Shown piece after piece: positions 18,560 to 36,542 of a stretch of DNA of 36,567 nt. The notes under the pieces were generated by a model, which saw only the letters and a program-made list of their open reading frames with translations, did not search any database and was not told the DNA's origin. Location of the stretch: contig CAMSZT010000033.1 in assembly GCA_947066815.1 (NCBI GenBank), positions 1 to 36,567 of the forward strand. The letters are read 5' to 3'. Numbering within the stretch: the stretch's first letter is position 1; each line of letters starts with the position of its first letter. This stretch comes from an uncultured Lachnotalea sp. GTDB taxonomy: Bacteria > Bacillota > Clostridia > Lachnospirales > Lachnospiraceae. The position numbers and the translations under genes are program-made.

Positions 18560-18565
18560 TGGCCG

Positions 18566-18645
18566 GAGGGGCCGTCAGAAAACTTTCCATCGCAGACACG
18601 GCTTACGCCTATCGTCTGCTCACGGAAATTTTCTGACGGCCCCTC
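18566..18645. repeat. Nested palindromic element, family A, copy 1 (complete)
   Basis: Outer arms GAGGGGCCGTCAGAAAA (18566-18582) and TTTTCTGACGGCCCCTC (18629-18645) are perfectly complementary over 17 bp. Inside, TTTCC/GGAAA, then GCAGAC (18592-18597)/GTCTGC (18614-18619), then GGC/GCC pair in turn, with unpaired ATC, AC, TATC and TCAC segments. The core matches the copy at 36460-36542 almost exactly, whereas the arms do not. It follows pyk but has no T run, so it is not an ordinary terminator. Confidence 0.9.
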
Positions 18646-18659
18646 CTCACTCGGTCTCT

Positions 18660-18710
18660 CCGGGGCGGACTCGGCTTACGCCTGGCGGCGGCTCTCGGAA
18701 CAGCCCCTGG
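18660..18710. repeat. Nested palindromic element, family A, shortened copy
   Basis: Bases 18667-18700 match 18595-18628-type core sequence of the copy just to the left at 27 of 34 positions, including an identical CGGCTTACGCCT. Its own short arms, CCGGGGC and GCCCCTGG, flank it. The TTTCCATCGC part of the left side is missing. It stands 14 bases to the right of the complete copy. Confidence 0.65.
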
Positions 18711-36459: not shown

Positions 36460-36542
36460 GGGAGCGTGCGGAAAATGCTTTCCATCGCAAACACGGCGAA
36501 ACGCCTATCGTTTGCTCACGGAAACATTTTCCGCACGCTCCC
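36460..36542. repeat. Nested palindromic element, family A, copy 2 (complete)
   Basis: Outer arms GGGAGCGTGCGGAAAATG (36460-36477) and CATTTTCCGCACGCTCCC (36525-36542) are perfectly complementary over 18 bp and differ from the arms of copy 1. The inside (CTTTCCATCGCA, A, ACACGGC and ACGCCTATCGT, T, TGCTCACGGAAA) matches copy 1 except at the variable inner stem base pair and the apical loop (GAAA here, TTAC there). A further fragment with CGGGTGAAACGC begins at 36556 and is cut off by the window edge; it may be a second shortened copy. Confidence 0.9.

What the first reader, a model, noticed from the sequence alone, without database searches (positions are those of the whole stretch)
18566..18645. 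Palindromic element whose loops are conserved but whose arms covary
Comparing 18566-18645 with 36460-36542: the segments CTTTCCATCGCA, ACACGGC, ACGCCTATCG and TGCTCACGGAAA are the same in both. The 17-18 bp outer arms are different in sequence yet perfectly self-complementary in each. The inner stem is GCAGAC/GTCTGC in one and GCAAAC/GTTTGC in the other, a compensated pair change. Conserved unpaired segments plus freely changing stems is the mark of a structure under selection, either as RNA or as a folded DNA element. It has no T run and no coding capacity. I know of no named family that matches, but I could not search.
Basis: partly seen in the sequence, partly recalled or inferred. Interest (0 to 1): 0.8.

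Follow-up and report, generated by a model that had tools for sequence, protein, structure and literature searches.

The report
Dispersed hairpin repeats after gut-bacterium genes
The two look-alike hairpins are short members of an unnamed family of long hairpin repeats, found mostly just after genes in a group of gut bacteria, whose unpaired parts stay similar while the two sides of the outer stems change together.

Summary
In detail: both copies are at the stated coordinates, with identical loops, different but perfectly self-complementary 18-bp arms, and a compensated inner pair. They are not an isolated pair. A model of the core finds 8 places in the genome (E<=0.1). A same-site comparison exposed a longer ~140-nt core; its model gives 42 matches in this genome (32 distinct places listed) and matches in 7 of 11 genomes of the genus and 16 of 397 sampled genomes of the family, own included. 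The window copies are short members with only the basal module. No Rfam family matches. Short copies are strongly enriched at convergent gene junctions. In 13 same-site pairs from two species, loops changed 7.2%, arms 12.2%, flanks 13.8%. Compensated arm changes far exceed chance; about 45% are transversions, without clear G-U strand bias; two of 15 cores are flipped. I read this as a REP/ERIC/MITE-like repeat whose arms are kept paired largely by replication template switching (inferred), and whose loops are recognised by something unknown: a new variant of bacterial interspersed palindromes.

The parts
18565..18646 (.). Copy 1, complete short element (perfect 18-bp outer arms plus core)
18565..18582 (+). 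Copy 1 left arm; begins 5 nt after the pyruvate kinase stop codon
18583..18628 (-). Copy 1 core (level-1 module); model R1 match on the minus strand, 73.4 bits
18629..18646 (+). Copy 1 right arm, reverse complement of the left arm
18656..18700 (.). Degenerate look-alike of the core, 76% identical, no paired arms; may be a decayed half-unit like those that follow full copies in congeners (inference)
36460..36542 (.). Copy 2, complete short element, ends 25 nt before the contig end
36478..36524 (-). Copy 2 core; model R1 match on the minus strand, 75.3 bits
17141..18559 (+). Pyruvate kinase gene directly upstream of copy 1
   Evidence: Pfam PF00224 and PF02887
35003..36376 (-). Sodium:neurotransmitter symporter family gene; copy 2 begins 83 nt before its start; in congener G007 a 414-aa ORF of the same strand precedes the gene
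   Evidence: Pfam PF00209; gene order in L074

Best explanation
These are short members of a dispersed family of long palindromic repeats in Lachnospiraceae. The full form is a rod-like hairpin of roughly 180-290 nt: in many copies outermost paired ends, then a drifting 15-25 bp arm pair, a conserved internal-loop module (level 1), a second conserved module (level 2), a drifting inner stem and a conserved tip. The window copies have level 1 only. Shown: copy number, location mostly next to gene ends, paired drifting arms, constrained loops, short and long forms at one site, flipped cores. Inferred: the element is, or was, a non-autonomous mobile repeat that settles in 3' intergenic DNA like REP, ERIC or MITE repeats; its loops are the recognised part (by an unknown mobilising or RNA-binding protein); its arms are free in sequence and are re-matched mainly when the replicating strand switches template from one arm to the other. 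When transcribed it would give a very stable hairpin at the 3' end of a gene, which may stabilise or delimit the upstream message.
For: Copies: R1 8 places in G000 at E<=0.1, one of them a half-unit. R2 matches at E<=0.01: 42 in G000, 32 in G010, 59 in G007, 15 in G009, 11 in G006, 10 in G005, 4 in G004, 0 in G001, G002, G003 and G008; the list was cut, and I count about 150 distinct listed places, 32 of them in G000. 16 of 397 family genomes, own included. Long form in G000 and short form in G010 at the same site. Location: short copies 20 convergent, 6 tandem, 0 divergent, 1 inside an ORF (27 of the 32 with paired arms), against 29/102/36 of 167 control gaps, Fisher p 3e-9 on intergenic cases; short and long together 2 of 61 divergent against 36 of 167, p 5e-4. 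Constraint in 13 same-site pairs: loops 45/627, arms 68/558, flanks 351/2535; loop v flank p 2e-6, arm v loop p 0.004, arm v flank p 0.34. Arm copying: in 15 same-site pairs, 40 compensated of 706 pairs with ~5.8 double changes expected if independent; 22 transition- and 18 transversion-type, not different from unpaired and flank bases (107:117, p 0.49). In element orientation with shorter flanks: 36 compensated (19 and 17), single changes 12 G-T and 11 A-C, cores flipped in 2 of 15. Arm homogenisation and spacer inversion are the two reported outcomes of template switching at inverted repeats (PMC8604942, passages; see PMC8794818, abstract and part of the introduction).
Against: No mobilising gene was identified. 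Y1 transposases (PF01797) were not found in G000, G004, G005, G006 and G007, which carry copies. No clean empty site with a target duplication was obtained. Template switching is inferred from patterns, not observed; selection without G-U tolerance would look similar. Over 134 distinct copies isolated G-T mismatches exceed A-C 61 to 42 (p 0.076), and with RNA-energy folding of same-site pairs one-sided changes that keep a G-U or other pair exceed A-C 28 to 17 (this method favours G-U): hints of RNA-level tolerance. The transversion-rich control (107:117) may be inflated by misaligned flanks. Stems were taken from one of the two copies, so changes are seen from that side only. One inner stem (helix 1) is 80% conserved, so not all stems drift. 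R2 also matches the opposite strand of some copies (4 of 15 matches), so the totals may count some copies twice. Gene calls in the location census are crude, and copies at the same site in two species were counted separately. Stability or processing roles are untested.
Confidence: 0.57

Rival explanations
1. A structured RNA (3' untranslated or intercistronic) under direct selection in each copy, for example an mRNA stabiliser, processing site or protein-binding RNA; stems covary by ordinary two-step compensation.
For: Loops are constrained in place at about half the flank rate; covariation is very strong; copies are mostly 3' of genes and seldom in divergent gaps; G-T exceeds A-C over all copies, 61 to 42, p 0.076; the internal loops contain conserved GA motifs (by eye).
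Against: Compensated changes are 45% transversion-type (18 of 40) and single changes in same-site pairs are not biased to G-T over A-C (12 v 11); cores are flipped relative to the flanks at 2 of 15 sites, which a strand-specific RNA would not tolerate easily.
Confidence: 0.25
2. Core sequences inserted into the loops of existing hairpins (terminators), so that arms are simply the host hairpins.
For: At the GntR-like/hydrogenase-like junction G000 has the same arms as G010 but a bare 11-nt loop followed by a T run. At the pyk site 4 of 6 congeners without a copy (G001, G002, G003, G006) have other perfect inverted repeats of 12-13 bp within 200 nt of the stop, with unrelated sequence.
Against: The bare loop retains CTTTC and CGTC and so may be a deletion remnant. 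At the symporter site 6 of 6 congeners without a copy have no inverted repeat of 9 bp or more, and none of the pyk hairpins shares the element's arms. Only 8 of 60 arm ends of short copies have TTTT, 5 TTTTT, within 12 nt. In G006 copies sit between successive same-strand genes.
Confidence: 0.11
3. A REP family moved by a REP-associated tyrosine transposase (RAYT).
For: Copy number, 3' location, inverted neighbouring pairs; several G000 long copies end in CTTCCGTC, reminiscent of the CGTC tag (by eye).
Against: Units are about 80-290 nt, not 20-40; PF01797 not found in five of the seven carrying genomes of the genus.
Confidence: 0.07

Closest known systems
REP / BIME / REPIN repeats, incl. GTAG- and CGTC-tagged REPs (PMC3733652 abstract and passages; PMC8266576 passages; PMC3116915 listing only)
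   Same: Many copies, palindromic, mostly downstream of genes and between convergent or same-strand genes, often neighbouring copies in opposite orientation; in REPs unpaired bases matter for recognition of the folded single strand.
   Different: Longer, several conserved internal loops, arms drifting freely, no Y1 transposase found in several carrying genomes; the main text of PMC3733652 has no occurrence of Clostrid or Firmicutes.
ERIC sequences (PMC2267715 passages; length, sequence conservation and palindrome-induced internal deletions recalled, not checked)
   Same: Long imperfect palindrome predicted to fold as one long stem-loop; short internally deleted forms (recalled).
   Different: ERIC is recalled as sequence-conserved and enterobacterial; here most stems are not conserved in sequence. 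No direct sequence comparison was run.
MITEs
   Same: Short dispersed units with inverted outer ends in some subfamilies.
   Different: Outer ends differ between subfamilies; no target duplication or matching transposase shown.
Template-switch (quasipalindrome) hairpin evolution (PMC8794818 abstract and part of the introduction; PMC8604942 passages; PMC7202029 listing only)
   Same: Arm homogenisation, double substitutions, spacer inversion.
   Different: That is a mutational process, not a repeat family; here it would act on well over a hundred related copies.

Membership tests
REP (GTAG/CGTC-tagged) | 20-40 bp palindrome | tested here: not met
   Short copies about 80-90 nt, long copies roughly 180-290 nt
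REP (GTAG/CGTC-tagged) | Unpaired GTAG or CGTC tag at one end | tested here: inconclusive
   Seen by eye only: several G000 long copies end in CTTCCGTC; others do not
REP (GTAG/CGTC-tagged) | High copy number, mostly 3' of genes / convergent junctions | tested here: met
REP-RAYT system | Y1/HUH transposase in the genome | tested here: not met
   PF01797 hits in 3 of 11 genomes of the genus (G002, G009, G010); none in G000, G004, G005, G006, G007, which carry copies; some of these genomes are incomplete
ERIC | Conserved ~127-bp enterobacterial sequence (recalled) | not tested
   No ERIC sequence was fetched or compared
MITE | Conserved terminal inverted repeats of a known transposon and a target duplication | tested here: inconclusive
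   Inverted outer ends in subfamilies; no clean empty site
Intrinsic terminator | G+C-rich hairpin followed by a T run | tested here: not met
   Both window copies lack a T run; 8 of 60 arm ends of short copies have TTTT within 12 nt; long copies not counted
Any Rfam 15 family | Score above gathering threshold | tested here: not met
   0 hits in the window; 8 sub-threshold hits at E<=10 on four loci, five of them microRNA models; in ten loci with long copies two hits, both in L131 outside the element

The most novel reading that the evidence does not exclude
A family of selfish palindromes in which loops are kept by selection for recognition while arms are sequence-neutral and kept complementary by replication itself, so that base-pair covariation, normally taken as proof of selected RNA structure, arises largely from template switching in well over a hundred natural copies.
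Probability: 0.35. Interest if true: 0.75.

Novelty: new variant of a known kind. Interest (0 to 1): 0.6.

Why it matters
The family gives a natural test bed for a basic question: how far can stem covariation come from mutation (arm-to-arm copying) rather than from selection on RNA? Well over a hundred copies, some at the same sites in related species, with loops, arms and flanks evolving at measurably different rates, let the two be separated. It also adds a sizeable unnamed repeat family to gut bacteria, one that may break draft assemblies (copy 2 ends 25 nt before a contig end, and a tandem array lies at the ends of two contigs of G010, one of them at the same locus).

Tried and rejected
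Rfam: 0 hits in the window at gathering thresholds; at E<=10 on L096, L042, L004 and L003 eight sub-threshold hits, five of them microRNA models. Coding: copy 1 reads ADTAYAYRLLTEIF and the look-alike ADSAYAWRRLSEQ in one frame (read by eye), but the extra loop base shifts the frame in copy 2 and the pattern is structural, so dropped. A common neighbour gene: several ~490-aa neighbours proved to be an artefact of the 1500-nt flank limit; the genes look ordinary (by eye). Y1 transposase partner: not found in several carriers. Phages and plasmids: no full-length relative; best plasmid matches cover 20% or less of the query; exact motif scans of viral contigs gave 0 hits, a scan for the tip motif 6. 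The class-wide search with R3 hit only G000 (1 of 391), but for the genomes shown only 8 of hundreds of candidates were scored, so it is a weak negative.

Literature: none of the listed papers of searches describes this family by title or shown abstract. The library is open-access only, so absence from print is not shown. I saw passages, not the family tables, of PMC2267715.

Rows dropped before counts. One search used 44 of 45 R1 rows (one cut off by a contig end). One search used 51 of 75 R2 rows (antisense, partial and duplicate rows dropped) and its printed output was cut; A6 used 39 chosen rows. Searches used 15 of the 18 locus pairs (one long-versus-short pair and two duplicate or one-sided pairs dropped; two flipped pairs kept); one search used 13 (the two flipped ones dropped). 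The location census used 43 long copies (4 at an edge and 4 inside an ORF were not classed) and 27 of the 32 short copies with paired arms. The 32 short copies were chosen for paired arms (32 of 44), so their pairing score is not an unbiased estimate. One search failed on a file name and was repeated.

Full report
What was checked. Copy 1 is 18565-18646 and copy 2 is 36460-36542. Loops are identical, the 18-bp arms are different and perfectly paired, and one inner pair is compensated. Each folds far better than shuffles, on both strands. A decayed third core lies at 18656-18700.

More copies. A covariance model of the two cores (R1) finds 8 places in the 3.44-Mb genome at E<=0.1, one of them a half-unit, and 10 at E<=10. 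In a sample of 61 genomes only five, all of the genus, have matches at E<=0.1. Named records with the core are five stretches of three Lachnospiraceae MAGs; contig lengths suggest that G010 is the MAG with accession prefix JAAWRC (inference). Of 44 matches examined, 32 have clearly paired arms. Those arms pair with their own partner at a mean score of 16.1, against 5.4 for partners of other copies (9 of 992 foreign pairings reach 11; the 32 were chosen for pairing). Arms are 33% identical between copies against 30% expected from composition, 28 nt of the core 78%.

The longer form. Comparing two G010 copies with the same sites in G000 gave two surprises. At one site G000 keeps the arms around a bare loop. 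At the other, G000 has a long form whose tip carries about 90 extra nt. A model of two long copies (R2) gives 42 matches in G000, 59 in G007, 32 in G010, 15 in G009, 11 in G006, 10 in G005, 4 in G004 and none in G001, G002, G003 and G008; the printed list was cut, and I count about 150 distinct places in it, 32 of them in G000. R2 also matches the opposite strand of some copies (4 of 15 matches), so the totals may count some twice. In a sample of the family 16 of 397 genomes match, own included. So the window's two elements are short members of a widespread repeat. Long copies fold into single rods (e.g. about -165 kcal/mol for 245 nt). Two conserved internal-loop modules and a tip alternate with stems, most of which vary.

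Statistics of covariation. On 39 chosen long copies the consensus structure has 29 pairs; 27 carry changes on both sides (18.4 in shuffles), 92.5% of cells pair, the covariation score is 0.645 against 0.231 in shuffles, and no shuffle of 500 comes near. Slid partners give 32-50% pairing. Columns of the inner variable stem are 54% identical, outer columns 43%, the level-1 and level-2 loop regions 83-85%; the short stem next to level 1 is 80% identical, so not every stem drifts.

Same-site evolution. I used 15 sites that carry a copy in both G000 and G010. In symmetric DNA pairing, 706 stem pairs gave 622 unchanged, 40 compensated to another Watson-Crick pair, 4 double changes without pairing, and 40 single changes (12 G-T, 16 A-C, 12 other; contig orientation); about 6 double changes are expected if sides were independent. 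The compensated changes are 22 transition- and 18 transversion-type, like unpaired and flank positions (107:117, p 0.49; that control may be inflated by misalignment). With element orientation respected and shorter flanks the result is 36 compensated, 12 G-T and 11 A-C. With stems from RNA energy folding it is 50 compensated, 28 one-sided changes that keep a G-U or other pair, 17 A-C and 43 broken. At two of the 15 sites the core is flipped relative to the flanks. In the 13 unflipped pairs loops changed at 7.2%, inner stems 6.0%, arms 12.2%, flanks 13.8%. Arm sequence thus drifts about like the flanks while pairing is kept, and loops are constrained in place.

What keeps arms paired. Two-step compensation in an RNA should pass mostly through G-U pairs, giving transitions and a strand bias. 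Neither is clear in same-site pairs, although over all 134 distinct copies G-T exceeds A-C 61 to 42 (p 0.076). Template switching between arms copies one arm onto the other in one step and can invert the spacer; both outcomes are described for short inverted repeats (PMC8604942, passages; see PMC8794818, abstract and part of the introduction). I therefore favour template switching for the arms and selection for the loops. This is inference; selection on a DNA hairpin would leave similar marks.

Where they sit. Copy 1 begins 5 nt after the stop codon of pyruvate kinase. Congeners G004, G005 and G009 have copies at the same place with other arms; G010 has only a piece resembling the start of the left arm; G001, G002, G003, G006, G007 and G008 have no copy there. 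Four of those six (G001, G002, G003, G006) have other perfect inverted repeats of 12-13 bp within 200 nt, with unrelated sequence; G007 and G008 have none of 9 bp or more. Copy 2 begins 83 nt before a symporter gene. Six of six congeners without a copy there have no inverted repeat of 9 bp or more; the G004 copy has decayed arms. In G007 the gene before the symporter is a 414-aa ORF of the same strand (its likeness to ornithine acetyltransferase is recalled, not tested). Short copies are at convergent junctions in 20 of 26 classed intergenic cases, against 29 of 167 control gaps (p 3e-9). Short and long together are seldom in divergent gaps (2 of 61, both the same site in two species, against 36 of 167, p 5e-4). 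Copies at the same site in several species were counted apart and gene calls were crude. In G006 four copies sit between successive same-strand genes, which argues against a terminator role; only 8 of 60 arm ends of short copies have TTTT within 12 nt.

Rearranged forms. Some full copies are followed by half-units made of core plus right arm: tandem 74-bp units at the ends of G010 contigs C36 and C27, and repeats after pyk in G005 and G009. Copy 2 ends 25 nt before the contig end, probably because of such an array (inference). Subfamilies have outer inverted ends of different sequence. Clean empty sites were not obtained.

What it is like. The location and copy number match REP repeats, described as lying mostly downstream of genes and between same-strand and convergent genes (PMC3733652, abstract), but size, internal loops and the absence of a Y1 transposase match from five of seven carriers in the genus differ. 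Nothing in Rfam matches. None of the papers listed by searches describes it by title or shown abstract. Part of the tip of a copy from another genus (L144) also matches an Ilyobacter megaplasmid (8 places), and the exact tip pattern GTTTGAGCGNAGCGAGTTT occurs in 6 viral contigs; R3 does not match those loci. Wider kin may thus exist that share only the tip.

Verdict. Observation confirmed; interpretation partly supported. A real family without a name that I could find, best placed as a new variant of bacterial interspersed palindromes. Its most interesting feature is that pairing is kept although arm sequence drifts about as fast as the flanks.

Noticed in passing
L156:14205-14358 and L161:19755-19908: A second palindrome family: shared core GCCCTCTGCGCCATGGAAA..GAGACCATGGAAAAC..GGAGGGCC with different perfect arms.
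   Followed up: no
L042 end (G010 C36) and L040 start (G010 C27): Tandem 74-bp half-units (core plus right arm) at two contig ends, apparently one array broken by assembly.
   Followed up: partly
L063, downstream of pyk (G005): Four tandem units mixing the right half of one element with the left arm of a neighbouring inverted element.
   Followed up: no
L064 and L066, downstream of pyk (G006, G002): Sites without the element have other perfect 12-bp inverted repeats with 38-nt spacers, of different sequence in each species; one arm seems to lie in the 3' end of the facing gene (by eye).
   Followed up: partly
L235 (Ilyobacter polytropus pILYOP01) and L236-L241 (viral contigs): The tip motif, in L237 and several others within long hairpins, outside Lachnospiraceae; in L235, L237 and L240 a second inverted repeat beginning near CCTTGA follows.
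   Followed up: partly
L131:1013-1179 and 1356-1430: A Clostridiales-1 RNA and a fluoride riboswitch lie just before a long copy in G315.
   Followed up: no
L007/L030 and L202/L223: Core flipped relative to the flanks at the same site in two species.
   Followed up: yes
L095/L081 (G000 C23): Hairpin with the same arms as the G010 copy but a bare 11-nt loop and a T run: possible core loss leaving a terminator-like hairpin.
   Followed up: partly
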